Assembly (NCBI RefSeq): GCF_964204865.1
Contig: NC_135262.1
Coordinates: forward strand, 3,286,001-3,350,000
DNA: 64,000 nt
Reading direction: 5' to 3'
Source: Styela clava
Lineage: Eukaryota > Chordata > Ascidiacea > Stolidobranchia > Styelidae
This document shows positions 1 through 57,009 of the stretch, one piece after another. A program made the translations under genes and the position numbers. Positions within the stretch are counted from its first letter, which is position 1. Each line of letters starts with the position of its first letter. Under the pieces are notes generated by a model. The model saw nothing but the letters and a program-made list of their open reading frames with translations, was not told the origin of the DNA and searched no databases.

Positions 1-95
1 GGCGCCGACTGCAACTATGCATGGAACAAGATTATGTATAGATTTCATTAACTAATTGTAAGGTTTGTTGTTTCATTTATTCGATAGTTAAACAT

Positions 96-102
96 AAAAA
101 AA
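96..102 (-). terminator. Pol III T-run terminator
   Basis: Seven T on the minus strand, 11 nt beyond the 3' end of the tRNA at 114-185. Most UGU and C33-CGU units have a comparable run of T4 or more in the same place. Confidence 0.8.
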
Positions 103-124
103 TGGGAACCAAAGCCACCAGTGA

Positions 125-134
125 GGATCGAACT
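125..134 (-). promoter_or_regulatory. Pol III box B of tRNA-Thr(UGU)
   Basis: AGTTCGATCC matches the core of box B (GGTTCGANTCC) bound by TFIIIC. Given as the reference example for the array. Confidence 0.85.
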
Positions 135-167
135 CACGACCCCTGGTTTACAAGACCAGTGCTCTAA

Positions 168-178
168 CCACTGAGCTA
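168..178 (-). promoter_or_regulatory. Pol III box A of tRNA-Thr(UGU)
   Basis: TAGCTCAGTGG fits the internal box A consensus TRGCNNAGYNGG. Given as the reference example; the same box recurs in every consensus UGU and CGU unit and is lost in the units with a decayed D arm. Confidence 0.85.
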
Positions 179-199
179 TGGCGGCGACTGAAAACGCTA

Positions 200-226
200 A
201 TGAAACAAGACAATGTTTGGATTTGA
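200..226 (-). promoter_or_regulatory. Conserved 5' flank block of the tRNA units
   Basis: On the minus strand this reads AATCCAAACATTGTCTTG, about 21-42 bp upstream of the tRNA. Related blocks (AAATCTATACATTATCTTG and similar) precede nearly every unit type, even where the rest of the spacer differs. It may be a TATA-like upstream Pol III element or only shared descent. Confidence 0.4.
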
Positions 227-386
227 TTAATTAATTCCACTCGTTCGGATTTGATTGGCGCCGACTATGGTGCCGACTGAAACTATTCATGGAACAAGAT
301 AATGTATAGATTTCAGTAACTAATTGTCAGGTGTGTTGTTTCATTTTCTCGATAGATAAGACATAAAAAAAAAACAAAGAACCAAA

Positions 387-458
387 GCCACCAGTGAGGA
401 TCGAACTCACGACCCCTGGTATACAGGACCAGTGCCCTAACCACTGAGCTATTGCGGC
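387..458 (-). tRNA. tRNA-Thr (UGU)-like, C33 variant
   Basis: Body as 114-185, but the anticodon loop is CCTGTAT (C33, U38) and acceptor position 6 is A opposite G67. A long A-rich stretch downstream gives a T-run. Function is doubtful. Confidence 0.5.
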
Positions 459-639
459 GACTAAAATCGCGAATGAAACAATACAATGTGTGGATTTGAT
501 TAACTAATTTCACTCGTTCGGATCCGATTGGCGCCAACTAGAACTATGCAAGGAGCAAGACAATGTATAGATTTCATTAACTATGAATGTCATTTTTTTA
601 ATTTCTTGATATATAGACAACACAAAGGGAGCATCCAAA

Positions 640-711
640 GCCTCCAGTGAGTATCGACCTCTCGACACTTGGTTTACAAGACCAGCGCCCTAACAGCTGA
701 GCTATGGCTGC
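640..711 (-). pseudogene. Divergent tRNA-Thr(UGU)-like unit, GCAGCC type
   Basis: First of a family that sits 156 bp from a consensus CGU gene. It keeps anticodon UGU, but the acceptor is GCAGCCA/TGGAGGC, giving two adjacent purine mismatches (A3-G70, G4-A69). C27-A43 fails to pair and the T loop reads GTCGATC, damaging box B. The T stem of this copy is further broken. No T4 run lies near its 3' end, unlike the neighbouring genes. Confidence 0.65.
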
Positions 712-770
712 GACTGAAAACGCGGGTGGAACATGACAATGTGTGGATTTGATTGATTTGTTGATAAAGC

Positions 771-774
771 AAAA
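771..774 (-). terminator. Pol III T4 terminator of the CGU gene
   Basis: TTTT in the context CTGCTTTTGC, 22 nt downstream of the CGU gene at 796-867. The same motif follows nearly all CGU units. Confidence 0.6.
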
Positions 775-795
775 GCAGTCAAAGACAACAATACA

Positions 796-867
796 GCCAC
801 CAGCGAGATTCGAACTCGCGACCCCTGCTTTACGAGAGCAGTGCTCTAACCACTGAGCTATGGCGGC
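796..867 (-). tRNA. tRNA-Thr (anticodon CGU), consensus copy
   Basis: Reads ACG threonine codons. Acceptor, D arm and box A equal those of the UGU gene. The anticodon arm is CTGCT-CTCGTAA-AGCAG (CGU, U33 present) and the T arm GCGAG-TTCGAAT-CTCGC, all paired. N73 is U, with no CCA and no intron. A T4 run lies 22 nt downstream at 771-774. Thirteen copies have exactly this body: 796, 1662, 2529, 4197, 5847, 8655, 10309, 13277, 20728, 22174, 30271, 39189 and 50167. The difference from UGU copies is concentrated in matched stem changes, so the two are old isoacceptors rather than recent mutants of each other. Confidence 0.94.
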
Positions 868-2600: not shown

Positions 2601-2701
2601 GTCGAAAATGCAAATGGAACGAAACAATTTATAGATTTCAATGACTAATTGCCATTTTCTTATTTTCTTGATAGATAGACATCACGGAACAAGCATGCAA
2701 A

Positions 2702-3321
2702 GCCACCAGTGAGGATCGAACTCACGACCCCTGGTTTACAAGACCAGTGCTCTAATTACAGATGTATGGCGGCTACTGAAAAGACCGTTGAAACAGGACA
2801 ATGTATAGATTTGAATAACTACTTTCACTCGTTCGGATTTGACGGATTGTTAGATATACCATAAGAAGCCGTCCAGAAAAGCAATAAAGCCACCTGCTCG
2901 GTAACAATTCGCAACTCCTGCTTTACGAGAGCATTGCACTAACCATTGAACTATGGCGTCGAATGAAACTATACATGAAAGAGGCTAAGGTATAGATTTT
3001 GTTAAATAGTTGTTATTTTTTAATTTTCTTGAAAGATAGACATAAACAAAGGGATATCCAAAGCCACTAGTAATGATCGAACTCACGACCCCTGGTTTAC
3101 AAGACCAGTGCTCTAATTGCGGATGTATATCGGCTACTGAAAAGACCGTTGGAAAAGGACAATGTATGGATTTGATTAACTACTTTCACTCGTTCGGATT
3201 TGACGGATTGTTAGATATACCATAAGAAGCCGTCCAGAACAGCAATAAAGCCACCTGCTCGGTTACAATTCGCGACTCCTGCTTTACGAGAGCACTGCAC
3301 TAACCATTGAAATATGGCGTC
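2702..3321 (-). pseudogene. Run of four decayed tRNA-Thr units
   Basis: 2702-2773 and 3063-3134 are UGU units with lost box A (D arm replaced by ACATCTGTAAT-like sequence). 2889-2960 and 3250-3321 are CGU units with ruined T arms (no TTCGA core) and acceptor GACGCCA. The period alternates between 174 and 187 bp. Confidence 0.8.
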
Positions 3322-14539: not shown

Positions 14540-14641
14540 GACTGAAACTATCCGTGGAAGAAGATAATGTATAGATTTCGTTAAATAATTGTCATTTTTT
14601 TATTTCTTGAAAGACAGACATAAACAAAAGGGACATCCAAA

Positions 14642-14713
14642 GCCACCAGTGAGGATCGAACTCACGACCCCTGGTTTGAAAGACCAGTGCTCTAACCACT
14701 GAGCTATGGCGGC
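14642..14713 (-). tRNA. Thr-bodied tRNA with UUC anticodon
   Basis: Spacer and body match the UGC family, but the loop is CTTTCAA, so the anticodon reads UUC (glutamate GAA codons). It differs from UGC by one base (G35 to U). All stems pair and both boxes are intact. Charging cannot be predicted: threonine determinants G35 and U36 are both lost. Confidence 0.7.
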
Positions 14714-16699: not shown

Positions 16700-16898
16700 G
16701 ACTGAAAACGCTAATTAAACAAGACAATGTTTGGATTTGATTAACTAATTCCACTCGTTCGGATTTGATTGGCGCCGACTATGGCGCCGACTGAAACTAT
16801 TCATGGAACAAGATAATGTATAGATTTCAGTAACTAATTGTCAGGTATGTTGTTTCATTTACTCGATAGTTAAGACCTAAAATAAAAAAAGAACCAAA

Positions 16899-16970
16899 GC
16901 CACCAGTGAGGATCGAACTCACGACCCCTGGTTTGCAAGACCAGTGCTCTAACCACTGAGCTATGGCGGC
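16899..16970 (-). tRNA. Thr-bodied tRNA with UGC anticodon
   Basis: Same body as 4911-4982 (loop CTTGCAA). Its 3' flank is of the C33 type rather than the usual flank of this family, so it arose by exchange within the array. Confidence 0.78.
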
Positions 16971-20643: not shown

Positions 20644-20727
20644 GACTGAAAACGCGGGTGGAACATGACAATGTGTGGATTTGATTGATTGGTTGATAAA
20701 GCAAAAGCAGTCAAAGACAACAATACA

Positions 20728-20799
20728 GCCACCAGCGAGATTCGAACTCGCGACCCCTGCTTTACGAGAGCAGTGCTCTAACCACTGAGCTATGGCGGC
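20728..20799 (-). tRNA. tRNA-Thr (CGU)
   Basis: Identical to the consensus CGU body. Confidence 0.94.
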
Positions 20800-20899
20800 G
20801 TCGAAAATCAAATGGAACGAAACAATTTATAGATTTCAATAACTAATTGCCATTTTCCTATTTTCTTGATAGATAGACATCACGGATCGAGCATGCAAA

Positions 20900-21155
20900 T
20901 CCAACAGTGAGGATCGAACTCACGACCCTTTGTTTACAAGACCAGTGCTCTAATTACGGATGTATGGTGATTACTGAAAAGACCGTTGGTAAAGGAAAAT
21001 GAATAGATTTGATTATCTACTTTCACTCGTTCGGATTCGATTGATTGGTTGATAGAGCAAAAGCAATTAAAGACAACAATTAAGCCACCAGTGAGGATCG
21101 AACTCGCGACCCCTGCTTTACGAGAGCAGTGCACTAACCAACGAACTATGGCGTT
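20900..21155 (-). pseudogene. Two tRNA-Thr pseudogenes (20900-20971, 21084-21155)
   Basis: Same pair type as 968-1223. Confidence 0.8.
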
Positions 21156-21263
21156 GAATGAAACTATGCATGGAACAAGATAATGTGTAGATTTCATTAA
21201 CTAATTGTAAGGTTTGTTGTTTCATTTACTCGATAGATGGACATCAAAAAACTAGGAACCAAA

Positions 21264-21335
21264 GCCACCAGTGAGGATCGAACTCACGACCCCTGGGTTA
21301 CAAGACCAGTGCTTTAACCACTGAGCTATGGCGGC
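21264..21335 (-). tRNA. tRNA-Thr (UGU), anticodon-stem mismatch
   Basis: A39 to C breaks the pair closing the anticodon loop, and there is one D-loop change. Confidence 0.62.
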
Positions 21336-21519
21336 GTCTGAACACGCAAAGGAAACAAGACATTGTGTGGATTTGATTAACTAATTTAACTCGTTCGGAT
21401 TTGATTGGCGCCGACTGCAACTATGCATGGAACAAGATAATGTATAGATTTCATTAACTAATTGTAAGGTTTCATGTTTCATTTACTCGATAGTTAAACA
21501 TAAAAAAATTGGAACCATA

Positions 21520-21591
21520 GCCACCAGTGAGAATCGAACTCATGACCCCTGGTTTACAAGACCAGTGCTCTAACCAGTGAGCTATGGCGGC
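21520..21591 (-). tRNA. tRNA-Thr (UGU), T-stem mismatch
   Basis: Changes in the T stem, T loop and D loop. The anticodon arm and acceptor are consensus. Confidence 0.6.
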
Positions 21592-21790
21592 GACTGAAAA
21601 CGCTAATTAAACAAGACAATGTTTGGATTTGATTAACTAATTCCACTCGTTCGGATTTGATTGGCGCCGACTATGGCGCCGACTGAAACTATTCATGGAA
21701 CAAGATAATGTATAGATTTCAGTAACTAATTGTCAGGTATGTTGCTTCATTTACTCGATAGTTAAGACATAAAATAAACAAAGAACCAAA

Positions 21791-21862
21791 GCCTCAATTG
21801 AGGATCGAACTCAGGACCCCTGGTTTACGGGACCAGTGCCCTAACCACTGAGCTATGGCGGC
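21791..21862 (-). tRNA. tRNA-Thr (CGU), C33 family
   Basis: Loop CCCGTAA, with mismatches in the acceptor 3' strand and T stem. Confidence 0.42.
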
Positions 21863-22034
21863 GACTAAAATCGCGAATGAAACAAGATAATGTGTGGATT
21901 TGATTAACTAGTTCGGATCCGATTGGCGCCAACTGAAACTATGCATGGAGCAAGACAATGTATAGATTTCATTAACTATGAATGCCATTTTTTTAATTTC
22001 TTGAGAGATAGACAATACAAACGTAGCATCCAAA

Positions 22035-22106
22035 GCCTCCAGTGAGGATTTAACTCACGACCCTTGGTTTACAAGACCAGCGCCCTAACAACTGAGATAT
22101 GGCTGC
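22035..22106 (-). pseudogene. Divergent tRNA-Thr(UGU)-like unit, GCAGCC type
   Basis: As 8516-8587, with T loop broken (TTAAATCC) and a box A change. Confidence 0.7.
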
Positions 22107-22173
22107 GACTGAAAACGCGGGTGGAACATGACAATGTGTGGGTTTGATTGATTGATAGATAAAGCAAAATATA

Positions 22174-22245
22174 GCCACCAGCGAGATTCGAACTCGCGAC
22201 CCCTGCTTTACGAGAGCAGTGCTCTAACCACTGAGCTATGGCGGC
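22174..22245 (-). tRNA. tRNA-Thr (CGU)
   Basis: Identical to the consensus CGU body. Shortened downstream spacer as at 8655, but here a T4 run is present. Confidence 0.92.
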
Positions 22246-22346
22246 GTTGAAAATGCAAATGGAACGAAACAATTTATAGATTTCAATGACTAATTGCCAT
22301 TTTCTTATTTTCTTGATAGATAGACATCACGGAACGAGCATGCAAA

Positions 22347-22966
22347 GCCACCAGTGAGGATCGAACTCACGACCCCTGGTTTACAAGACCAGTGCTCTGA
22401 TTACAGATGTATGGCGGCTACTGAAAAGACCGTTGGAACAGGACAATGTATAGATTTGAATACCTACTTTCACTCGTTCGGATTTGACGGATTGTTAAAT
22501 ATACCATAAGAAGCCGTCCTGAACAGCAATAAAGCCACCTGCTCGGTTACAATTCGCGACTCCTGCTTTACGAGAGCATTGCACTAACCATTGAACTATG
22601 GCGTCGACTGAAACTATACATGAAAGAGGCTAAGGTATAGATTTTGTTAAATAGTTGTTATTTTTTAATTTTCTTGAAAGATAGAAATAAACAAAGGGAT
22701 ATCCAAAGCCACTAGAGATGATCGAACTCACGACCCCTGGTTTACAAGACCAGTGCTCTAATTGCGGATGTATATCGGCTACTGAAAAGACCGTTGGAAA
22801 AGGATAATGTATAGATTTGATTAACTACTTTCACTCGTTTGGATTTGACGGATTGTTAGATATACCATAAGAAGCCGTCCAGAACAGCAATAAAGCCACC
22901 TGCTCGGTTACAACTCGCGACTCCTGCTTTACGAGAGCACTGCACTAACCATTGAACTATGGCGTC
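22347..22966 (-). pseudogene. Run of four decayed tRNA-Thr units
   Basis: 22347-22418 and 22708-22779 (UGU, no box A); 22534-22605 and 22895-22966 (CGU, ruined T arm). Confidence 0.8.
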
Positions 22967-23069
22967 GATTGAAACTATGCATGGAACAAGATAATATGTA
23001 GATTTCGTTAAATAGTTGTTATTTTTTAATTTTCTTGAAAGATAGACAAAAACAAAAGCGACACCCAAT

Positions 23070-23141
23070 GCCACCAGTGAGAATCGAACTCACGACCCCT
23101 GGTTTACAAGACCAGTGCTCTAACCACTGAGCTATGGCGGC
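23070..23141 (-). tRNA. tRNA-Thr (UGU)
   Basis: As 3425-3496: one harmless T-loop change and all stems paired. Confidence 0.85.
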
Positions 23142-23250
23142 GACTGAAAAGACTGAAACAAGACAATGTGTGGATTTGATTAACTACTTTAGCTCGTTCG
23201 GATTTGATTGATTGGTTGATAGAGCAAAAGCAGTTAAAGCCAGCAATTAA

Positions 23251-23322
23251 GCCATCAGTGAGGATCGAACTCGCGACCCCTGCTTTATGAGAGCAGTGCA
23301 CTAACCATTGAACTATAGCGTT
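23251..23322 (-). pseudogene. tRNA-Thr-derived unit with CAU anticodon
   Basis: Loop CTCATAA. Acceptor decayed on both strands. Confidence 0.75.
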
Positions 23323-23431
23323 GACTGAAACTATGCATGGAACAAGATAATGTGTAGATTTCATTAACTAATTGTAAGGTTTGTTGTTTCATTTACTCGA
23401 TAGATAAGACATAAAAAAACAAAGAACCAAA

Positions 23432-23503
23432 GCCACCAGTGAGGATCGAATTCACGACCCCTGGTTTACGGGACCAGTGCCCTGACCACTGAGCTATAGC
23501 GGC
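23432..23503 (-). tRNA. tRNA-Thr (CGU), C33 family
   Basis: Loop CCCGTAA, a T-stem mismatch, and an acceptor change absent from its duplicate at 31529. Confidence 0.45.
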
Positions 23504-23684
23504 GACTAAAATCGCGAATGAAACAAGACAATGTGTGGATTTGATTAACTAATTTCACTCGTTCGGATCCGATTGGCGCCAACTGAAACTATTCATGGAG
23601 CAAGACAATGTATGGATTTCATTAACTATGAACGTCATTTTTTTAATTTCTTTATAGATAGACAATACAAGGAGAGCATCCAAC

Positions 23685-23756
23685 GCCTCCAGTGAGGATC
23701 GAACTCACGACCTTGGGTTTACAAAACCAGCGCCCTAACAGCTGAACTATGGCTGC
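23685..23756 (-). pseudogene. Divergent tRNA-Thr(UGU)-like unit, GCAGCC type
   Basis: Subfamily of 1506-1577, with box A TAGTTCAG. Confidence 0.65.
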
Positions 23757-23840
23757 GACTGAAAACGCGGGTGGAACATGACAATGTGTGGATTTGATTG
23801 ATTGGTTGATAAAGCAAAAGCAGTCAAAGACAACAATACA

Positions 23841-23912
23841 GCCACCAGCGAGATTTGAACTCGCGACCCCTGCTTTACGAGAGCAGTGCTCTAACCACTG
23901 AGCTATGGCGGC
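23841..23912 (-). tRNA. tRNA-Thr (CGU)
   Basis: One T-loop substitution (TTCAAAT), a form also found in vertebrate tRNA-Thr. All stems pair. Confidence 0.85.
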
Positions 23913-24013
23913 GTCGAGAATGCAAATGGAACGAAACAATTTAGAGATTTCAATGACTAATTGCCATTTTCTTATTTTCTTGATAGATAGACATCACGGA
24001 ACGAGCATGCAAA

Positions 24014-24447
24014 GCCACCAGTGAGGATCGAACTCGCGACCCCTACTTAATGAGAGCAGTGCACCAACCAATGAACTATGGCGTTGACTGAAACTATGCA
24101 TGGAACAAGATTATGTGTAGATTTCATTAACAAATTGTAAGGTTTGATGTTTCATTTACTTGCTAGATGGACATCAAAAAACTAGGAACCAACGCCACCA
24201 GCGAGGACTCACGTGCCCTGGTTTACAAGACCAGTGTTCTAACCACTGAGCTATGGCGGCGACTCAAAACGCTAATGAAACAAGACAATGTGTAGATTTG
24301 ATTAACTACTTTCACTCGTTCGGATTTGACGGATTGTTAGATATACCATAAGAAGCCGTCCAGAACAGCAATAAAGCCACCTGCTCGGTTACAACTCGCG
24401 ACTCCTGCTTTACGAGAGCACTGCACTAACCATTGAACTATGGCGTC
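24014..24447 (-). pseudogene. Three decayed units (24014-24085, 24194-24260, 24376-24447)
   Basis: A CAU unit with loop CTCATTA; a 67-nt UGU unit whose T arm is rearranged; and a CGU unit with a ruined T arm. Confidence 0.8.
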
Positions 24448-24550
24448 GATTGAAACTATGCATGGAACAAGATAATATGTAGATTTCGTTAAATAGTTGT
24501 TATTTTTTAATTTTCTTGAAAGATAGACATAAACAAAAGCGACATCCAAT

Positions 24551-24622
24551 GCCACCAGTGAGAAACGAACTCACGACCCCTGGTTTACAAGACCAGTGCT
24601 CTAACCACTGAGCTATGGCGGC
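24551..24622 (-). tRNA. tRNA-Thr (UGU), T-loop change
   Basis: T loop TTCGTTT, losing conserved A58. Otherwise consensus. Confidence 0.65.
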
Positions 24623-24731
24623 GACTGAAAAGACTGAAACAAGACAATGTGTGGATTTGATTAACTACTTTAGCTCGTTCGGATTTGATTGATTGGTTGA
24701 TAGAGCAAAAGCAGTTAAAGACAGCAATTAA

Positions 24732-24803
24732 GCCACCAGTGAGGATCGAACTCGCGACCCCTGCTTTATGAGAGCAGTGCACTAACCATTGAACTATGGC
24801 GTT
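24732..24803 (-). pseudogene. tRNA-Thr-derived unit with CAU anticodon
   Basis: Loop CTCATAA, acceptor AACGCCA. Confidence 0.75.
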
Positions 24804-24912
24804 GACTGAAACTATGCATGGAACAAGATAATGTGTAGATTTCATTAACTAATTGTAAGGTTTGTTGTTTCATTTACTCGATAGATAAGACATAAAAAAA
24901 CAAAGAACCAAA

Positions 24913-24984
24913 TCCACCAGTGAGGATCGAATTCACGACCCCTGGTTTACGGGACCAGTGCCCTGACCACTGAGCTATGGCGGC
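24913..24984 (-). tRNA. tRNA-Thr (CGU), C33 family
   Basis: Loop CCCGTAA. The terminal acceptor base is changed (pair 1-72 lost). Confidence 0.42.
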
Positions 24985-25165
24985 GACTAAAATCGCGAAT
25001 GAAACAAGACAATGTGTGGATTTGATTAACTAATTTCACTCGTTCGGATCCGATTGGCGCCAACTGAAACTATTCATGGAGCAAGACAATGTATGGATTT
25101 CATTAACTATGAACGTCATTTTTTTAATTTCTTTATAGATAGACAATAGAAGGAGAGCATCCAAC

Positions 25166-25237
25166 GCCTCCAGTGAGGATCGAACTCACGACCTTGGGTT
25201 TACAAAACCAGCGCCCTAACAGCTGAACTATGGCTGC
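25166..25237 (-). pseudogene. Divergent tRNA-Thr(UGU)-like unit, GCAGCC type
   Basis: As 23685-23756. Confidence 0.65.
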
Positions 25238-25321
25238 GACTGAAAACGCGGGTGGAACATGACAATGTGTGGATTTGATTGATTGGTTGATAAAGCAAAA
25301 GCAGTCACAGACAACAATACA

Positions 25322-25393
25322 GCCACCAGCGAGATTTGAACTCGCGACCCCTGCTTTACGAGAGCAGTGCTCTAACCACTGAGCTATGGCGGC
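25322..25393 (-). tRNA. tRNA-Thr (CGU)
   Basis: Same body as 23841-23912. Confidence 0.85.
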
Positions 25394-25494
25394 GTCGAGA
25401 ATGCAAATGGAACGAAACAATTTAGAGATTTCAATGACTAATTGCCATTTTCTTATTTTCTTGATAGATAGACATCACGGAACGAGCATGCAAA

Positions 25495-25938
25495 GCCACC
25501 TGTGAGGATCGAACTCGCGACCCCTACTTAATGAGAGCAGTGCACTAACCAATGAACTATGGCGTTGACTGAAACTATGCATGGAACAAGATTATGTGTA
25601 GATTTCATTAACAAATTGTAAGGTTTGATGTTTCATTTACTTGCTAGATGGACATCAAAAAACTAGGAACCAACGCCACCAGCGAGGACCAGTGAGGACT
25701 CACGAGCCCTGGTTTACAAGACCAGTGCTCTAACCACTGAGCTATGGCGGCGACTCAAAACGCTAATGAAACAAGACAATGTGTAGATTTGATTAACTAC
25801 TTTCACTCGTTCGGATTTGACGGATTGTTAGATATACCATAAGAAGCCGTCCAGAACAGCAATAAAGCCACCTGCTCGGTTACAACTCGCGACTCCTGCT
25901 TTACGAGAGCACTGCACTAACCATTGAACTATGGCGTC
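25495..25938 (-). pseudogene. Three decayed units (25495-25566, 25675-25751, 25867-25938)
   Basis: As 24014-24447, except that the middle unit is 77 nt, with a duplicated piece in its T arm. Confidence 0.8.
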
Positions 25939-31419: not shown

Positions 31420-31528
31420 GACTGAAACTATGCATGGAACAAGATAATGTGTAGATTTCATTAACTAATTGTAAGGTTTGTTGTTTCATTTACTCGATAG
31501 ATAAGACATAAAAAAACAAAGAACCAAA

Positions 31529-31600
31529 GCCACCAGTGAGGATCGAATTCACGACCCCTGGTTTACGGGACCAGTGCCCTGACCACTGAGCTATGGCGGC
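31529..31600 (-). tRNA. tRNA-Thr (CGU), C33 family
   Basis: Duplicate of 23432-23503, but with the normal acceptor GCCGCCA. Confidence 0.48.
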
Positions 31601-31781
31601 GACTAAAATCGCGAATGAAACAAGACAATGTGTGGATTTGATTAACTAATTTCACTCGTTCGGATCCGATTGGCGCCAACTGAAACTATTCATGGAGCAA
31701 GACAATGTATGGATTTCATTACCTATGAACGTCATTTTTTTAATTTCTTTATAGATAGACAATACAAGGAGAGCATCCAAC

Positions 31782-31853
31782 GCCTCCAGTGAGGATCGAA
31801 CTCACGACCTTGGGTTTACAAAACCAGCGCCCTAACAGCTGAACTATGGCTGC
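31782..31853 (-). pseudogene. Divergent tRNA-Thr(UGU)-like unit, GCAGCC type
   Basis: Duplicate of 23685-23756. Confidence 0.65.
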
Positions 31854-31937
31854 GACTGAAAACGCGGGTGGAACATGACAATGTGTGGATTTGATTGATT
31901 GGTTGATAAAGCAAAAGCAGTCAAAGACAACAATACA

Positions 31938-32009
31938 GCCACCAGCGAGATTTGAACTCGCGACCCCTGCTTTACGAGAGCAGTGCTCTAACCACTGAGC
32001 TATGGCGGC
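31938..32009 (-). tRNA. tRNA-Thr (CGU)
   Basis: Duplicate of 23841-23912. Confidence 0.85.
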
Positions 32010-32110
32010 GTCGAGAATGCAAATGGAACGAAACAATTTAGAGATTTCAATGACTAATTGCCATTTTCTTATTTTCTTGATAGATAGACATCACGGAACG
32101 AGCATGCAAA

Positions 32111-32554
32111 GCCACCAGTGAGGATCGAACTCGCGACCCCTACTTAATGAGAGCAGTGCACCAACCAATGAACTATGGCGTTGACTGAAACTATGCATGG
32201 AACAAGATTATGTGTAGATTTCATTAACAAATTGTAAGGTTTGATGTTTCATTTACTTGCTAGATGGACATCAAAAAACTAGGAACCAACGCCACCAGCG
32301 AGGACCAGTGAGGACTCACGTGCCCTGGTTTACAAGACCAGTGTTCTAACCACTGAGCTATGGCGGCGACTCAAAACGCTAATGAAACAAGACAATGTGT
32401 AGATTTGATTAACTACTTTCACTCGTTCGGATTTGACGGATTGTTAGATATACCATAAGAAGCCGTCCAGAACAGCAATAAAGCCACCTGCTCGGTTACA
32501 ACTCGCGACTCCTGCTTTACGAGAGCACTGCACTAACCATTGAACTATGGCGTC
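32111..32554 (-). pseudogene. Three decayed units (32111-32182, 32291-32367, 32483-32554)
   Basis: Duplicate of 24014-24447, but the middle unit is 77 nt rather than 67, which shifts the offset of the duplication by 10. Confidence 0.8.
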
Positions 32555-32657
32555 GATTGAAACTATGCATGGAACAAGATAATATGTAGATTTCGTTAAA
32601 TAGTTGTTATTTTTTAATTTTCTTGAAAGATAGACATAAACAAAAGCGACATCCAAT

Positions 32658-32729
32658 GCCACCAGTGAGAAACGAACTCACGACCCCTGGTTTACAAGAC
32701 CAGTGCTCTAACCACTGAGCTATGGCGGC
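32658..32729 (-). tRNA. tRNA-Thr (UGU), T-loop change
   Basis: Duplicate of 24551-24622. Confidence 0.65.
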
Positions 32730-32838
32730 GACTGAAAAGACTGAAACAAGACAATGTGTGGATTTGATTAACTACTTTAGCTCGTTCGGATTTGATTGAT
32801 TGGTTGATAGAGCAAAAGCAGTTAAAGACAGCAATTAA

Positions 32839-32910
32839 GCCACCAGTGAGGATCGAACTCGCGACCCCTGCTTTATGAGAGCAGTGCACTAACCATTGAA
32901 CTATGGCGTT
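32839..32910 (-). pseudogene. tRNA-Thr-derived unit with CAU anticodon
   Basis: Duplicate of 24732-24803. Confidence 0.75.
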
Positions 32911-33019
32911 GACTGAAACTATGCATGGAACAAGATAATGTGTAGATTTCATTAACTAATTGTAAGGTTTGTTGTTTCATTTACTCGATAGATAAGACAT
33001 AAAAAAACAAAGAACCAAA

Positions 33020-33091
33020 TCCACCAGTGAGGATCGAATTCACGACCCCTGGTTTACGGGACCACTGCCCTGACCACTGAGCTATGGCGGC
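33020..33091 (-). pseudogene. C33-family unit with extra mismatch
   Basis: Duplicate of 24913-24984, with a further anticodon-stem substitution. Confidence 0.5.
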
Positions 33092-33272
33092 GACAAAAAT
33101 CGCGAATGAAACAAGACAATGTGTGGATTTGATTAACTAATTTCACTCGTTCGGATCCGATTGGCGCCAACTGAAACTATTCATGGAGCAAGACAATGTA
33201 TGGATTTCATTAACTATGAACGTCATTTTTTTAATTTCTTTATAGATAGACAATAGAAGGAGAGCATCCAAC

Positions 33273-33344
33273 GCCTCCAGTGAGGATCGAACTCACGACC
33301 TTGGGTTTACAAAACCAGCGCCCTAACAGCTGAACTATGGCTGC
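33273..33344 (-). pseudogene. Divergent tRNA-Thr(UGU)-like unit, GCAGCC type
   Basis: Duplicate of 25166-25237. Confidence 0.65.
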
Positions 33345-33428
33345 GACTGAAAACGCGGGTGGAACATGACAATGTGTGGATTTGATTGATTGGTTGATAA
33401 AGCAAAAGCAGTCACAGACAACAATACA

Positions 33429-33500
33429 GCCACCAGCGAGATTTGAACTCGCGACCCCTGCTTTACGAGAGCAGTGCTCTAACCACTGAGCTATGGCGGC
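33429..33500 (-). tRNA. tRNA-Thr (CGU)
   Basis: Duplicate of 25322-25393. Confidence 0.85.
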
Positions 33501-33601
33501 GTCGAGAATGCAAATGGAACGAAACAATTTAGAGATTTCAATGACTAATTGCCATTTTCTTATTTTCTTGATAGATAGACATCACGGAACGAGCATGCAA
33601 A

Positions 33602-34045
33602 GCCACCTGTGAGGATCGAACTCGCGACCCCTACTTAATGAGAGCAGTGCACTAACCAATGAACTATGGCGTTGACTGAAACTATGCATGGAACAAGATT
33701 ATGTGTAGATTTCATTAACAAATTGTAAGGTTTGATGTTTCATTTACTTGCTAGATGGACATCAAAAAACTAGGAACCAACGCCACCAGCGAGGACCAGT
33801 GAGGACTCACGAGCCCTGGTTTACAAGACCAGTGCTCTAACCACTGAGCTATGGCGGCGACTCAAAACGCTAATGAAACAAGACAATGTGTAGATTTGAT
33901 TAACTACTTTCACTCGTTCGGATTTGACGGATTGTTAGATATACCATAAGAAGCCGTCCAGAACAGCAATAAAGCCACCTGCTCGGTTACAACTCGCGAC
34001 TCCTGCTTTACGAGAGCACTGCACTAACCATTGAACTATGGCGTC
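33602..34045 (-). pseudogene. Three decayed units (33602-33673, 33782-33858, 33974-34045)
   Basis: Duplicate of 25495-25938. Confidence 0.8.
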
Positions 34046-34148
34046 GATTGAAACTATGCATGGAACAAGATAATATGTAGATTTCGTTAAATAGTTGTTA
34101 TTTTTTAATTTTCTTTAAAGATAGACATAAACAAAAGCGACATCCAAT

Positions 34149-34220
34149 GCCACCAGTGAGAAACGAACTCACGACCCCTGGTTTACAAGACCAGTGCTCT
34201 AACCACTGAGCTATGGCGGC
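34149..34220 (-). tRNA. tRNA-Thr (UGU), T-loop change
   Basis: Duplicate of 26042-26113. Confidence 0.65.
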
Positions 34221-34329
34221 GACTGAAAAGACTGGAACAAGACAATGTGTGGATTTGATTAACTACTTTAGCTCGTTCGGATTTGATTGATTGGTTGATA
34301 GAGCAAAAGCAGTTAAAGACAGCAATTAA

Positions 34330-34401
34330 GCCACCAGTGAGGATCGAACTCGCGACCCCTGCTTTATGAGAGCAGTGCACTAACCATTGAACTATGGCGT
34401 T
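34330..34401 (-). pseudogene. tRNA-Thr-derived unit with CAU anticodon
   Basis: Duplicate of 26223-26294. Confidence 0.75.
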
Positions 34402-34510
34402 GACTGAAACTATGCATGGAACAAGATAATGTGTAGATTTCATTAACTAATTGTAAGGTTTGTTGTTTCATTTACTCGATAGATAAGACATAAAAAAACA
34501 AAGAACCAAA

Positions 34511-34582
34511 GCCACCAGTGAGGATCGAATTCACGACCCCTGGTTTACGGGACCAGTGCCCTGACCACTGAGCTATGGCGGC
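34511..34582 (-). tRNA. tRNA-Thr (CGU), C33 family
   Basis: Duplicate of 26404-26475. Confidence 0.48.
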
Positions 34583-34763
34583 GACTAAAATCGCGAATGA
34601 AACAAGACAATGTGTGGATTTGATTAACTAATTTCACTCGTTCGGATCCGATTGGCGCCAACTGAAACTATTCATGGAGCAAGACAATGTATGGATTTCA
34701 TTAACTATGAACGTCATTTTTTAAATTTCTTTATAGATAGACAATACAAGGAGAGCATCCAAA

Positions 34764-34835
34764 GCCTCCAGTGAGGATCGAACTCACGACCTTGGGTTTA
34801 CAAAACCAGCGCCCTAACAGCTGAGCTATGGCTGC
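34764..34835 (-). pseudogene. Divergent tRNA-Thr(UGU)-like unit, GCAGCC type
   Basis: Duplicate of 26657-26728. Confidence 0.65.
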
Positions 34836-34919
34836 GACTGAAAACGCGGGTGGAACATGACAATGTGTGGATTTGATTGATTGGTTGATAAAGCAAAAGC
34901 AGTCAAAGACAACAATACA

Positions 34920-34991
34920 GCCACCAGCGAGATTCGAACTCGCGACCCATGCTTCACGAGAGCAGTGCTCTAACCACTGAGCTATGGCGGC
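34920..34991 (-). tRNA. tRNA-Thr (CGU), stem mismatch
   Basis: Duplicate of 26813-26884, with one new substitution at the base of the anticodon stem. Confidence 0.65.
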
Positions 34992-35092
34992 GTCGAGAAT
35001 GCAAATGGAACAAAACAATTTAGAGATTTCAATGACTAATTGCCATTTTCTTATTTTCTTGATAGATAGACATCACGGAACGAGCATGCAAA

Positions 35093-35536
35093 GCCACCAG
35101 TGAGGATCGAACTCGCGACCCCTACTTAATGAGAGCAGTGCACCAACCAATGAACTATGGCGTTGACTGAAACTACGCATGGAACAAGATTATGTGTAGA
35201 TTTCATTAACAAATTGTAAGGTTTGATGTTTCATTTACTTCCTAGATGGACATCAAAAAACTAGGACACAACGCCACCAGCGAGGACCAGTGAGGACTCA
35301 CGAGCCCTGGTTTACAAGACCAGTGCTCTAACCACTGAGCTATGGCGGCGACTGAAAACGCTAATGAAACAAGACAATGTGTAGATTTGATTAACTACTT
35401 TCACTTGTTCGGATTTGATTGATTGGTGGATATACCAAGAGAAGCCGTCCAAAACAGCAATGAAGTCACCAGCGCGGTTCCAACTCGCGACTTCTGCTTC
35501 ACGACAGCAGTGTACAAACCAATGAACTATGGCGTC
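35093..35536 (-). pseudogene. Three decayed units (35093-35164, 35273-35349, 35465-35536)
   Basis: Duplicate of 26986-27429. Confidence 0.78.
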
Positions 35537-35633
35537 GACTGAAACTATCCGTGGAAGAAGATAATGTATAGATTTCGTTAAATAATTGTCATTTTTTATT
35601 TCTTGAAAGACATAAACAAAAGGGACATCCAAA

Positions 35634-35705
35634 GCCACCAGTGAGGATCGAACTCACGACTCCTGGTTTGCAAGACCAGTGCTCTAACCACTGAGCTATG
35701 GCGGC
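35634..35705 (-). tRNA. Thr-bodied tRNA with UGC anticodon
   Basis: Duplicate of 27527-27598. Confidence 0.78.
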
Positions 35706-35890
35706 GACTTAACCCGCGAAGGAAACAAGACAATGTGTAGATTTGATTACCTAATTTCACTCGTTCGGATTTGATTGGCGCCGACTGAAACTATGCATGG
35801 AACAAGATAATGTATAGATTTCATTAACTAATTGTAAGGTTTGTTGTTTCATTTAAACGATAGATGGACATCAAAAAACTAGGAACCAAA

Positions 35891-35962
35891 GCCACCAGTG
35901 AGTATCGAACTCACGACCCCTGGTTTACAAGACCAGTGCTCTAACCACTGAGCTATGGCGGC
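35891..35962 (-). tRNA. tRNA-Thr (UGU), T-stem mismatch
   Basis: Duplicate of 27784-27855. Confidence 0.7.
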
Positions 35963-36160
35963 GACTGAAAACGCTAATAAAATAAGTCAATGTTTGGATT
36001 TGATTAACTAATTCCACTCGTTCGGATTTGATTGGCGCCGACTATGGCGCCAACTGAAACTATTCATGGAACAAGATAATGTATAGATTTCAGTAAGTAA
36101 TTGTCAGGTGTGTTGTTTCATTTATTCGATAGATAACACATAAAAAAACAAAGAACCAAA

Positions 36161-36232
36161 GCCACCAGCGGGGATCGAACTCACGACCCCTGGTTTACGG
36201 CACCAGTGCCCTAGCCACAGAGCTATGACGGC
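36161..36232 (-). pseudogene. C33-family unit, degraded
   Basis: Duplicate of 28054-28125. Confidence 0.55.
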
Positions 36233-36413
36233 GACTAAAATCGCGAATGAAACAAGACAATGTGTGAATTTGATTAACTACTTCCACTCGTTCGGATCCG
36301 ATTGGCGCAAACTGAAACTATGCACGGAGCAAGACAATGTATAGATTTCATAAGCTATGAATGTCATTTTCTTAATTTCTTGATAGATAGACAACACAAA
36401 GGGGGCATCCAAA

Positions 36414-36485
36414 GCCTCCAGTGAGGATCGAACTCACGATCTTTGGTTTACAAGACCAGCGTCCAAACAGCTGAGCTATGGCTGC
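36414..36485 (-). pseudogene. Divergent tRNA-Thr(UGU)-like unit, GCAGCC type
   Basis: Duplicate of 28307-28378. Confidence 0.68.
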
Positions 36486-36569
36486 GACTGAATACGCGGG
36501 TGGAACATGACAATGTGTGGATTTGATTGATTGGTTGATAAAGCAAAAGCAGTCAAAGACAACAATACA

Positions 36570-38145
36570 GCCACCAACGAGATTCGAACTCGCGACCCCT
36601 GCTTTAGAAAGCAGTGCTCTAACCACTGAGCTATGGCGGCGTCGAAAATTCAACGGAACCCGAACAATTTATAGATTTCATTGACTAATTGCCATTTTCT
36701 TATTTTATTGATAGATAGACATCACGGAACGAGCATGCAAAGCCACCAGTGAGGATCGAACTCACGACCCCTGGTTTACAAGACCAGTGCTCTAATTACG
36801 GATGTATATCGGCTACTGAAAAGACCGTTGAAAAAGGATAATGTATAGATTTGATTAACTACTTTCACTCGTTCGGATTTGATTGATTGGTTGATAGAGC
36901 AAAAGCAGCTAAAGACAGCAATTAAGCCACCAGTGAGGATCGAACTCGCGACCCCTGCTTTATGAGAGCAGTGCACTAACCAATGAACTATGGCGATGAC
37001 TGAAACTATGCATGGAACAAGATAATGTGTAGACTTCATTAACTAATTGTAAGGTTTGTTGTTTCATTTATTCGATAGATGAACATCAAAAAACAAGGAA
37101 CCAAAGCCACCAGTGAGGATCGAACTCACGAGCCCTGGTGATTTACTACTTTCACTCGTTCGGGTTTGATTGATTGGTTGATAGAGCAAAAGCAGTTACA
37201 GACAGCAATTAAGCCACCAGTGAGGATCGAACTCCCGACCCCTGCTTTATGAGAGCAGTGCACTAACCAACGAACTATGGCGTCGACTGAAACTATCCAT
37301 GGTAGATTTCATTAACTAATTTTAAGGTTTGTTGTTTCATTTACTCGATAGATGTACATCAAAAAACTAGGAACCAAAGTTACCAGTGAGGATAGAACTC
37401 ACGACCCCTGGTTTACGAGACCAGTGCACTAACCACTGAGCTATGGCGGCGACTGTAAACGCTAATGATACAAGACAATGTGTGGATTTGATTAACCACT
37501 TCCAATCGTTCGGATTTTAATGATTGGTATATAAAGCAAAAGCAGTTAAAGACAGCAATAAAGCCATCAGAGAGATTTAAACTTGCGACCCCTGCTTTAC
37601 GAGAGGAGTTTTCTAACCACTGAGCTATGGCGGAATATTTAAAATACGGTTTAACTAATTGTCATTTTTTTAAGGTCTTGTTAGATTAACATCACAAAGG
37701 GAGCATTCAAAGCCACCATTGAAAATCGAAGTCGCGACCCCTGGTTTACAAGACCAGCGCCCTAACAACTGAGCTATGGCGGCAACTGCAAACGCAAATG
37801 AAACAAGACAATGTGTGAATTTGATTAACTACTTTCACTCTTTCGGATTTGATTGATTGGTGGATATACCAAGAGAAGCCGTCCAAAACAGCAATAAAGT
37901 CACCAGCGCGTTTCCAACTCGCGACTCCTGCTTCACGAGAGAAGTGCACTAACCAATGAACTATGGCGTCGACTGAAACTATGCGTGGAAGAAGATAATG
38001 TATAGATTTCGTTAAATAATTGTCAATTTTTTATTTTATTGAAAGACAGACATAAACAAAAGTGACTCGGTAAGCGACCAGTGAGGATTGAACCCGCGAC
38101 CCCTGCTTTACGAGAGCAGTTCACTAACCAATGAACTATTACGTC
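36570..38145 (-). pseudogene. Run of ten degraded units
   Basis: 36570-36640 (CGU, six-base anticodon loop), 36742-36813 (no box A), 36926-36997 (CAU), 37106-37139 (3' half only), 37213-37284 (CAU), 37379-37450 (CGU in a UGU-type stem, box B broken), 37563-37634 (ruined T arm), 37712-37783 (UGU, broken T loop), 37899-37970 and 38074-38145 (CGU derivatives with bad acceptors). Confidence 0.8.
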
Positions 38146-53822: not shown

Positions 53823-53930
53823 GACTAAAACTATGCATGAAACAAGATAATGTATAAATTTCATTAACTAATTGTGAGGTTTGTTGTTTCATTTACTCGA
53901 TAGATAAACATCAAAAAAATCGGAACCAAA

Positions 53931-54002
53931 GCCACCAGTGAGGATCAAACTCACGACCCCTGGTTTACAAGACCAGCGCCCTAACAACTGAGCTATGGCG
54001 GC
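53931..54002 (-). pseudogene. tRNA-Thr(UGU)-like unit
   Basis: Good acceptor and anticodon arm, but T loop TTTGATC (C56 lost) and a changed D loop. Confidence 0.5.
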
Positions 54003-54117
54003 AACAGGAGACGCAAATGAAACAAGACAATGTGTGAATTTGATTACCTACTTTCACTCGTTCGGATTTGACTCATTGGTGGATATACCAAGAGAAGCCG
54101 TCCAAAACAGCAATAAA

Positions 54118-54180
54118 GTCACCAGCGCGGATCCAACTCGCGACTCCTGCTTCACGAGAGAAGTGCACTAACCAATGAAA
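54118..54180 (-). pseudogene. 5'-truncated CGU unit
   Basis: The acceptor 5' strand and part of the D arm are missing, and the T loop is lost. Confidence 0.7.
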
Positions 54181-54275
54181 CTATGCATAGAACAAGATAA
54201 TGTATAGATTTCGTTAAAGAATTGTCAATTTTTAATTTTCTTGAAAGATAGACATAAACAAAAGGAACATCCGAC

Positions 54276-54347
54276 GCCACCAGTAAGGATCGAACTCATG
54301 GCCTTTGGTTTACAAGACCAGTGCTCTAACTACTGAGCTATGGCGGC
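54276..54347 (-). pseudogene. tRNA-Thr(UGU) with T-arm and variable-loop changes
   Basis: Acceptor and anticodon loop intact, but the T stem has two mismatches. Confidence 0.5.
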
Positions 54348-54544
54348 GACTCAGCACGCGAATGAAACAGGACAATGTGTGGATTGGATTACCTAATTTC
54401 ACTTTTTCGGATTTGATTAGCGCCGACCATGGCGTCGACTGAAACCATGCATGGAACAAGATAATGTATTGATTTCATTAACTAATTGTAAGGTTTGTTG
54501 TTTCATTTACTCGATAAATGGACATCAAAAAACTAGGAACCAAA

Positions 54545-55344
54545 GTCAAAAGTCAGGATCAAACTCACGACCCCTGGTTCACAAGACCATTGCTCTAACC
54601 ACTGAGCTAAGACGGCACCTGAAAACGCTAATGAAACAAGACAATGTGTAGATTTGATTAACCACTTTCACTTGTTCGGATTTGATTGATTGGTGGATAT
54701 ACCAAGAGAAGCTGTCCAAAACAGCAATGAAATCACCAGCGCGGTTCCAACTCGCGACTCCTGCTTCACGAGAGCAGTGCACTAACCAATGAACTACGGC
54801 GTCGACTGAAACTATGCATGAAACAAGATAATGTATAAATTTCATTAACTAATTGTGAGGTTTGTTGTTTCATTTACTCAATAGATAAACATAAAAAAAA
54901 TCGGAACCAAAGCCAACAGAGAGGATCAAACTCACGACCCCTGATTTACAAGACCAGCGCCCTATCAACTGAGCTATGGCGGCAACTGGAGGCTCGAATG
55001 AAACAAGACAATGTGTGAATTTGATTAACTACTTTCACTCGTTCGGATTTGATTCATTGGTGGATATACCAAGAGAAGCCGTCCAAAACAGCAATAAAGT
55101 CACCAGCGCGGTTCCAACTCGCGACTCCTGCTTCACGAGAGAAGTGCACTAACCAAAGAACTATGGCGTTGACTGAAACTATGCGTGGAAGAAGATAATG
55201 TATAGCTTTCGTTAAATAATTGTCATTTTTTATTTTCTTGAAAGACAGACATAAACAAAAGGGACATGGTAAGCCACAAGTAAGGATCGAACTCGCGACC
55301 CCTGCTTTACGAGAACAGTGCACTAACCAATGAACTATTACGTC
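54545..55344 (-). pseudogene. Run of five degraded units
   Basis: 54545-54616 and 54912-54983 (UGU), 54732-54803, 55099-55170 and 55273-55344 (CGU derivatives). All have broken acceptors or T loops. Confidence 0.75.
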
Positions 55345-55452
55345 GACCTAAACTATGCATGAAACAAGATAATGTATAGATTTCATTAACTAATTGTAAG
55401 GTTTGTTGTTTCATCTACTCGATAGATAAACATTAAAAAAATCGGAACCAAA

Positions 55453-55524
55453 GCCACCAGTGAGGATCGAACTCACGACCCCTGGTTTACAAGACCAGTG
55501 CTCTAACCACTGAGCTATGGCGGC
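55453..55524 (-). tRNA. tRNA-Thr (UGU), last consensus copy
   Basis: Identical to the consensus. The rightmost perfect copy before the array decays. Confidence 0.95.
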
Positions 55525-55708
55525 GACTGAACACGCGAAGGAAACAAGACAATGTTTGGATTTGATTAATTAATTCCACTCGTTCGGATTTGATTGGCGC
55601 CGACTGAAACTATTCATGGAACAAGATAATGTATAGATTTCATTAGCAATTGTCAGGTTTGTTGTTTCATTTACTCGATAGATAGACATCAAAAAACAAG
55701 GAACCAAA

Positions 55709-55780
55709 GCCATCAGTGAGGATCGAACTGACGACCCCCGGTCTACAGTACCAGTGCCCTAACCACTGAGCTATGGCGGC
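55709..55780 (-). tRNA. tRNA-Thr (UGU), divergent
   Basis: Loop ACTGTAG (UGU, U33 replaced by C), with T-stem and acceptor mismatches. Confidence 0.4.
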
Positions 55781-55965
55781 GATTAAAAACGCGAATGAAA
55801 CAAGACAATGTGTGAATTTGATTAACTTATTTCACTCGTTCGGATTTGATTGGCGCCGACTGAAACTATGCATGGAACAAGACAATGTATAGATTTCATT
55901 AACTAATTGTCAGGTTTGTTGTTTCATTTACTCGATAGATAGACATCAAAAAACAAGGCACCAAA

Positions 55966-56185
55966 GCCACCAGTAAGAATCGAACACACGACTACTGGTT
56001 TACAAAACCAGTGCTACAACCATTGAGCTATGACAGCAAATTTAAATACGGTTTACCTAAATGTCATTTTTTTAATTTCTTGACAGATAGACATCACAAA
56101 AGGAGCATCCAAAGCCACCAGTGAGGATCGAACGTCCGACCCTTGGTTTACAAGACCAGTGCCCTAACAGCTGAGATATGGCTGC
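55966..56185 (-). pseudogene. Two degraded UGU units (55966-56037, 56114-56185)
   Basis: Multiple stem mismatches in each. The second is of the GCAGCC family. Confidence 0.7.
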
Positions 56186-56269
56186 GACTGAAAACGCGGT
56201 TGGAACAAGACAATGTGTGGATTTGATTGATTTGTTGATAAAGCAAAAGCAGTCAAAGACAACATTACA

Positions 56270-57009
56270 GCCACCAGTGAGATTCGAACTCGCTACCCCC
56301 GCTTTACGAGAGCAGTGCCTTATCCACTACGCTATGACGACTACTGTAATCGCGAATGGAACGCGACAATGTATAGATTTCATTAACTAATTGCCATTTT
56401 CCTTTTTCCTTGATAGTTAGGCATCACAAAACAAACATGCAAAGTCATCAGTGAGGATAAAAATAACGACGCTTGGTTGCCAGACCAGTGCTCTAACCGC
56501 TGAGCTATGGTGGCGACTGAGAAACGCGGATGGAACAGGACAATGTATAGATTTGATTAACAGATTTAAAAAAAAATTTTACTTGATAGAAAGACATCAC
56601 AAAGGTGGGGATCGAACTCACGAAACGTGGTTCACATGACCAGTGCTCTAACCACCGAGCTATGGCGGCGACTGAAAACGAAGTTGGAACAAGACAATGT
56701 ATAAATTCCAACTAATTGCTCTCGCTTGGATTTGCTCAATTGATATAGCAAAAGAAGCGGTCAAAACAGCAATAATACCACCAGCGAGATTCGAACTCGC
56801 GACCCCTGCTTTACGAGAGCAGTGCTCTAACCCCTGAGACTGAAAACTTTAATACAGCACGACAATGTTTGGCTTTCATTCAAATTTCTTAATTAACTTG
56901 ATTGATGAATATTTCAAAAAAGGCAACCGAAAGCAAAATTCATCAGCGAGGATCGAGCCCTCGACGCTGGTTTACAAGACCAGTGTTCTAACCACTGAGC
57001 TAAAGCGGC
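56270..57009 (-). pseudogene. Right-edge run of five worn units
   Basis: 56270-56341 (CGU), 56444-56514 (71 nt), 56605-56669 (acceptor truncated), 56777-56838 (CGU with intact T and anticodon arms but no 5' acceptor strand) and 56939-57009 (UGU). Divergence is higher than anywhere else in the array. Confidence 0.78.

What the first reader, a model, noticed from the sequence alone, without database searches (positions are those of the whole stretch)
1..57009. Threonine-tRNA megasatellite of about 290 units on one strand
At least 57 kb is a single-orientation tandem array of tRNA-Thr genes and pseudogenes, including 16 identical UGU and 13 identical CGU copies with intact boxes and usually T-runs. 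Large tRNA clusters are known (zebrafish, Xenopus, Entamoeba), but an array made of one amino-acid family with two isoacceptors interleaved is unusual. Possible roles, all inference: high threonine demand, a TFIIIC-rich chromatin domain, a source of tRNA fragments, or a selfish satellite that merely uses a tRNA gene.
Basis: partly seen in the sequence, partly recalled or inferred. Interest (0 to 1): 0.88.

Follow-up and report, generated by a model that had tools for sequence, protein, structure and literature searches.

The report
Threonine tRNA gene tandem array
A long one-strand tandem array of threonine tRNA genes and their decayed copies, in what is probably a sea-squirt genome, is real but is one of several such tRNA arrays in that genome and belongs to a known kind of tRNA gene cluster.

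Summary
Sequence to the left extends the array to C17:3266126-3343009: 76.9 kb, 386 units, none on the other strand. The units fit descent from a dimer, [UGU gene + A-type spacer][CGU gene + C-type spacer], amplified into nested repeats of about 0.36, 1.5, 3, 4.9 and 8.1 kb. Only part is intact: 105 of 290 window units keep at least 20 of 21 stem pairs and 51 pass a stricter test; other slots are fixed pseudogenes. The exact UGU gene also sits in about five other flanking contexts, so it is a real gene; the tested spacer was listed only inside the array (truncated list). Against current constraint, recent duplicates show the gene changing no slower than the spacer. The genome, probably a tunicate, has further Thr-AGU/Gln, Lys and Cys arrays. 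Large tandem tDNA clusters are known, also in some tunicates (PMC5006418, PMC2888827). Verdict: new member of a known kind. Expression and copy number are untested.

The parts
1..57009 (-). part of the tRNA-Thr tandem array inside the window (290 units at 113-57009); the array continues left of the window to C17:3266126
113..185 (-). reference tRNA-Thr(UGU) gene; 16 identical copies in the window, 23 in the whole array
   Evidence: Rfam 71.4 bits
795..867 (-). reference tRNA-Thr(CGU) gene, of the D-E slot kind; 13 identical copies in the window; this slot is intact in 26 of 32 units of the whole array
   Evidence: Rfam 71.3 bits
1505..1577 (-). example of a fixed pseudogene slot (E-B kind): 0 of 29 intact in the whole array
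   Evidence: (43.7 bits)
2701..2773 (-). example of a pseudogene slot with a changed A box (C-D kind): 0 of 26 intact
   Evidence: (43.8 bits)
2888..2960 (-). example of the commonest pseudogene slot (A-C kind, CGU body): 0 of 76 intact; coordinates read off the sequence listing
20717..29030 (.). first copy of an 8.1-kb higher-order duplication
   Evidence: 98.0% identity to 28811-37139
28811..37139 (.). second copy of the 8.1-kb higher-order duplication
22551..27670 (.). nested 1.48-kb higher-order repeats inside the first 8.1-kb copy
   Evidence: 95.4% identity at a distance of 1480 bases
56443..57009 (-). decayed right edge of the array; the four outermost units match their best partner at only 0.55-0.76 of their length
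16898..16970 (-). one of eight intact Thr-bodied copies with anticodon UGC (here the only change is T36C)
14641..14713 (-). intact Thr-bodied copy with anticodon UUC (G35T, T36C)
   Evidence: Rfam 71.9 bits
57010..64000 (.). right flank outside the array: C2H2 zinc-finger fragments and a reverse-transcriptase fragment; no tRNA called

Best explanation
This is a nuclear multigene array that supplies tRNA-Thr(UGU) and tRNA-Thr(CGU). An ancestral dimer of one UGU gene and one CGU gene, about 0.36 kb, was amplified by unequal exchange into nested higher-order repeats (inferred from the repeat structure). Most likely each intact unit is transcribed singly by Pol III from its own A and B boxes and stops at a T-run just downstream (inferred; not shown). 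Selection probably acts on keeping enough working copies in the array as a whole, so single copies are free to decay (inferred). Decayed copies that share a repeat with good ones are copied along and become fixed pseudogene slots. The host, probably a tunicate, keeps several other tRNA families in arrays too.
For: 386 units, one strand, 76.9 kb. Body and spacer class go together in the window: A/B/D/F spacers follow UGU-type bodies in 175 of 186 units, C/E/G follow CGU-type bodies in 84 of 91. Higher-order duplications of 8.1, 4.9 and 1.5 kb at 95-98% identity. Best-partner identity by bins of 20 units is 0.95-1.00 inside and drops gradually at the right edge. Slots, whole array: D-E 26 of 32 intact, B-A 27 of 35, B-B 34 of 50, C-A 17 of 43; A-C 0 of 76, E-B 0 of 29, C-D 0 of 26. 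Nine further exact copies of the UGU gene lie in other loci, in about five kinds of flank; of their 18 flanks of 150 nt two have short matches to the array at E up to 0.001. The tested B spacer: every listed match lies in this array (list truncated, 40 of 70 candidates scored). T-runs follow 120 of 125 intact units. Longer-term divergence of gene relative to spacer is 0.44-0.72 in the four large intact slots and 0.73-1.64 in the three large decayed ones. Other family arrays in the same genome.
Against: Among mutual-best (most recent) duplicate pairs the gene is not more conserved than the spacer: intact slots 48/3640 against 108/13393 (gene faster, p=0.0058), decayed slots 21/3431 against 44/10110, no difference between slot kinds (p=0.87). 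So no current slot-level constraint is visible, and many intact genes may be surplus. The longer-term ratios nearly touch (C-A 0.72, C-D 0.73), and one small decayed slot, A-G (n=5), has a low ratio of 0.27. Spacer classes were defined by similarity, which biases spacer divergence. Gene conversion could also keep gene copies alike in different flanks. No expression, chromatin or read data.
Confidence: 0.75

Rival explanations
1. Mostly inert satellite DNA: a tRNA dimer that spread by unequal exchange and is now largely silent, while copies elsewhere supply the cell.
For: Most units are decayed (185 of 290 in the window by the 20-pair test); recent duplicates show no constraint on the gene; nested repeats with a decayed right edge are what satellites show.
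Against: 63 of 386 units pass a strict test of structure and invariant bases. Of 15 exact CGU copies listed genome-wide, 13 are in this array and 2 in a small plus-strand cluster nearby (40 of 261 candidates scored), so few exact CGU genes were seen elsewhere.
Confidence: 0.2
2. A tRNA-derived SINE or other dispersed repeat that happens to be tandem here.
For: tRNA-like promoter and many decayed copies.
Against: The 184-nt B spacer gives listed matches only inside the array (truncated list); copies are head to tail on one strand; most other exact gene copies have flanks without a match to the array.
Confidence: 0.02
3. An assembly artefact that multiplied a smaller array.
For: Highly repeated sequence; no read evidence available.
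Against: The large duplications differ by 2-9% and have different internal orders of units, which simple duplication of reads would not give; the right edge runs gradually into other sequence.
Confidence: 0.05

Closest known systems
Tandem tDNA clusters of some tunicates (Ciona savignyi, C. intestinalis, Botryllus schlosseri; PMC5006418, its section on transfer RNAs read)
   Same: Probably the same subphylum; the paper gives 90% of tDNA in clusters for C. savignyi and about 40% for the other two, predominantly direct tandem copies.
   Different: The section gives no unit structure, no array of this size and no isoacceptor dimer, so homology is untested. It also says that Didemnum vexillum (almost 99% unclustered) and Oikopleura dioica lack such clustering.
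Large tDNA clusters of eukaryotes (survey PMC2888827, passages and cluster section read)
   Same: Neighbouring tDNAs within 1 kb, mostly parallel; homogeneous clusters defined by one amino acid; clusters of fifty and more members in Nematostella and teleosts.
   Different: This one has 386 units of one amino acid with two isoacceptors and nested higher-order repeats.
Arabidopsis Ser-Tyr-Tyr tDNA cluster (PMC12308677, abstract and section headings read) and tRNA-Cys cluster (PMC10701932, search listing only)
   Same: Tandem tDNA repeats; a Cys unit of 0.4 kb; a heading says that the Ser/Tyr core region expanded by tandem duplication.
   Different: Plant; other amino acids; the Ser/Tyr cluster is silent in most tissues and active in root-cap cells, which is unknown here.
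Entamoeba tRNA arrays (PMC2652664, search listing only)
   Same: tRNA genes in tandem arrays (over 10% of that genome).
   Different: There array units hold up to five tRNA genes, some with 5S RNA, with short tandem repeats between genes; here one amino acid, and the shortest period that TRF reported in the array was 65 bases.
Human tRNA tandem repeat at 1q23.3 (PMC4041453, search listing only)
   Same: A tandem repeat carrying tRNA genes, variable in copy number.
   Different: Unit of 7.3 kb, 9-43 copies, binds CTCF; here short units with only Thr-like genes.

Membership tests
Homogeneous tandem tDNA cluster (definition of PMC2888827) | neighbouring tDNAs less than 1000 nt apart | tested here: met
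   largest gap between window units 256 nt; in the whole array one gap of 2014 nt near the left edge, the rest at most 256
Homogeneous tandem tDNA cluster (definition of PMC2888827) | all tDNAs of the same isoacceptor family (same amino acid) | tested here: inconclusive
   all units match a Thr profile, but some carry CAU, UGC, UUC or other anticodons
Homogeneous tandem tDNA cluster (definition of PMC2888827) | parallel orientation (typical, not required) | tested here: met
   386 on one strand, 0 on the other
Functional multicopy tRNA gene family | intact cloverleaf and invariant bases in a set of copies | tested here: met
   125 of 386 with at least 20 of 21 pairs; 63 of 386 by the strict test, 57 of them with a UGU or CGU anticodon
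Functional multicopy tRNA gene family | transcribed and aminoacylated | not testable with these tools
   no RNA or ChIP data
Functional multicopy tRNA gene family | purifying selection on gene relative to spacer | tested here: inconclusive
   lower longer-term ratio in intact slots but none between recent duplicates, where the gene is slightly faster
Satellite with higher-order repeats | nested multi-unit repeats | tested here: met
Satellite with higher-order repeats | homogenised middle and decayed edges | tested here: inconclusive
   clear at the right edge; at the left edge only the last two units score low, and one of these scores is distorted by the 2-kb interruption
Satellite with higher-order repeats | heterochromatic or centromeric location | not testable with these tools
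   no chromatin data; the array lies at 3.27-3.34 Mb of a 20.3-Mb contig
tRNA-derived SINE | dispersed copies of tRNA-like head plus tail through the genome | tested here: not met
   one spacer (B) tested; every listed match is within the array (list truncated, 40 of 70 candidates scored)

The most novel reading that the evidence does not exclude
A lineage of intact Thr-bodied tRNA genes with the alanine anticodon UGC has itself been amplified in the array (8 intact copies, 5 of them passing the strict test). If expressed and charged with threonine they would place threonine at alanine codons, a built-in source of missense decoding that could be tuned by array copy number.
Probability: 0.04. 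Interest if true: 0.7.

Novelty: new member of a known kind. Interest (0 to 1): 0.3.

Why it matters
It gives an ordered case in which working genes and dead copies hold fixed places in higher-order repeats, so the balance of unequal exchange, decay and selection on a tRNA family can be measured. Several tRNA families of this genome lie in long arrays, which bears on how tRNA gene dosage evolves. It does not call for a new kind of system.

Tried and rejected
Scan of viral contigs for a 21-base spacer motif: 0 matches. COX1 search, to find the mitochondrial genome: 0 matches. GFP search, as a test for anthozoan or lancelet: 0 matches, but the tool warned that its controls were also empty. The 18S rRNA search gave no usable answer and I did not repeat it. 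TFIIIC or boundary-element idea: exact B boxes persist in many decayed slots (81 of 169, against 89 of 164 in intact slots; exact A boxes 6 of 169 against 123 of 164), but B-box diversity is not specially low in the decayed slots and in A-C it is the highest region, so shared descent is enough. Slot-level purifying selection in recent duplicates: not found. Literature: 'tRNA gene + tandem array + tRNA-Thr + satellite' gave 0 papers and 'tRNA genes + tunicate + tandem + chromosome-level' one paper, on a gastropod. I make no claim that this array is unpublished beyond these searches.

The species was not identified. 'Tunicate' rests on one cellulose-synthase-like exon on C9 (open frame of 274 aa; PF03552 at 26.6 and 28.3 bits, PF13632 at 60.9 bits; best PDB match a putative cellulose synthase, E=7e-22), together with my recalled knowledge that among animals this enzyme is known from tunicates and that the PDB entry is bacterial. 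Contamination or another origin was not excluded.
Full report
What is there. The window is C17:3286001-3350000 of a 376.6-Mb, 379-contig genome. A Thr profile finds 290 tRNA-like units at window 113-57009. Rfam gives 212 tRNA matches at gathering score and ARAGORN 148 genes, all on the minus strand. Exact copies of the two reference genes number 16 (UGU) and 13 (CGU), all on the minus strand. With three adjacent stretches to the left, the array covers C17:3266126-3343009: 386 units on one strand and none on the other at E up to 0.01, with one 2014-nt interruption near the left edge. Chance is not an issue.

Architecture. Spacers fall into a few classes; five (A-E) hold 269 of 290 window units. 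UGU-type bodies are followed by A/B/D/F spacers in 175 of 186 units and CGU-type bodies by C/E/G spacers in 84 of 91. UGU and CGU bodies alternate more than shuffling allows (230 against a mean of 173.9 and a maximum of 203 in 1000 shuffles), and TRF reports periods of about 356-367 among others. I read this as an ancestral UGU-CGU dimer. The B spacer looks like an A spacer, a GGCGCC scar of a tRNA start, and a C-type tail, that is, a unit whose second gene was deleted (read from the sequences; inference). Larger repeats at distances of 1.48, 2.9-3.0, 4.85 and 8.1 kb recur at 91-98% identity. By bins of 20 units, mean best-partner identity is 0.95-1.00 inside the array, with single units as low as 0.52; it falls to 0.55-0.76 in the four outermost units at the right edge. 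At the left edge only the last two units score low, and the 2-kb interruption distorts that measure.

Working and dead copies. In the whole array 125 of 386 units keep at least 20 of 21 stem pairs without indels and 78 keep all 21; 63 also keep the invariant bases tested, 34 with UGU, 23 with CGU, 5 with UGC and 1 with UUC. In the window the numbers are 105, 63 and 51 of 290. The choice of invariant positions is from general knowledge of tRNAs. Intactness depends on position in the repeat: D-E 26 of 32, B-A 27 of 35, B-B 34 of 50 and C-A 17 of 43, but A-C 0 of 76, E-B 0 of 29 and C-D 0 of 26. T-runs follow 120 of 125 intact units within 40 nt (shuffled 90.2) and 146 of 261 others (shuffled 146.6).

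Gene family or satellite? Both descriptions fit parts of the structure. For genes: the exact UGU sequence occurs at other sites on C17 and C13. Nine such copies were examined, in about five kinds of flank (four C13 copies share one flank, two C17 copies another); of their 18 flanks two have short matches to the array. So the 73 nt are kept while most surroundings are not, although gene conversion could add to that. Two exact CGU copies in a nearby plus-strand cluster do have related downstream flanks (81-83%), so that cluster is kin to the array. The 184-nt B spacer was listed only within the array (the list was truncated and 40 of 70 candidates were scored). Against current constraint: between mutual-best duplicates the gene changes at least as fast as the spacer in both kinds of slot, 48/3640 against 108/13393 in intact slots and 21/3431 against 44/10110 in decayed ones, without a difference between the kinds (p=0.87). 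Pairs with both copies intact have a ratio of 0.98 and pairs with neither intact 1.93, but that split is partly circular. Longer-term divergence of gene relative to spacer is 0.44-0.72 in the four large intact slots and 0.73-1.64 in the three large decayed ones; among small slots the decayed A-G (n=5) is an exception at 0.27. I infer that selection holds a pool of working genes, not each copy.

Anticodon variants. Eight intact copies have UGC and one UUC on a Thr body. Seventeen intact copies have CGU on a UGU-type body; none of these passes the strict test, and seven at least change U33, so they may not work. From general knowledge threonyl-tRNA synthetase reads the anticodon, so the UGC copies may be poorly charged; not tested.

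Context. The genome holds other arrays, seen by search hits and sampled slices, not end to end. Thr-AGU hits, with Gln genes beside them in the four loci looked at, spread over C9:18.865-19.137 Mb, all 40 scored on one strand. Lys-UUU genes run on C2 from 15.883 to about 15.995 Mb, with a strand switch near 15.9897. Cys-GCA genes, with Trp-like genes on the other strand, run on C10 from at most 6.860 to about 6.930 Mb. Thr-UGU genes lie among Gly or Ile genes at two places on C13. A cellulose-synthase-like exon suggests a tunicate. In print, about 40% of tDNAs in C. intestinalis and B. schlosseri and 90% in C. savignyi lie in clusters, mostly direct tandem copies, whereas D. vexillum and O. 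dioica lack such clustering (PMC5006418, tRNA section). Clusters of fifty and more are described in other animals (PMC2888827, cluster section). A plant tRNA-Ser/Tyr cluster is silent in most tissues but active in root-cap cells (PMC12308677, abstract), a reminder that expression here must be measured.

Verdict. It is a new member of a known kind, notable for its size, its two-isoacceptor dimer and the fixed places of working and dead copies.

Noticed in passing
G000 contigs C54, C98, C125, C131, C138, C154, C191, C216, C296, C318, C340, C360 and others; L028:4357-4913 (from C154): Several small contigs carry a strong tRNA match that recurs every 44-46 kb. The one slice examined (C154) has a tight cluster of seven bacterial-type tRNA genes, Shine-Dalgarno-like motifs, and open frames that lengthen when TGA is read as Trp. 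Probably a mollicute phage or plasmid assembled head to tail.
   Followed up: partly
G000:C9:18864979-19136973: Thr-AGU hits over 272 kb with Gln genes beside them, spacing often about 1455 bases.
   Followed up: partly
G000:C2:15882721 to about 15995000: Lys-UUU array over 100 kb as sampled; the strand switches near 15.9897 Mb.
   Followed up: partly
G000:C10:6860001-6930000: Cys-GCA array as sampled, with opposite-strand Trp-like genes, some with anticodon UCA that ARAGORN labels SeC.
   Followed up: partly
window 58195-58840: C2H2 zinc-finger coding sequence split between frames, perhaps a pseudogene or sequence errors.
   Followed up: no
window 61309-62410: Reverse-transcriptase fragment (PF00078, 30.2 bits, at 61309-61494) followed by further open pieces, probably a decayed LINE-like element.
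   Followed up: no
recent duplicate pairs across the array: Gene bodies differ more than spacers between the newest duplicates where neither copy is intact (40/5174 against 64/15946, p=0.0018), which might reflect mutation linked to transcription; not tested.
   Followed up: no
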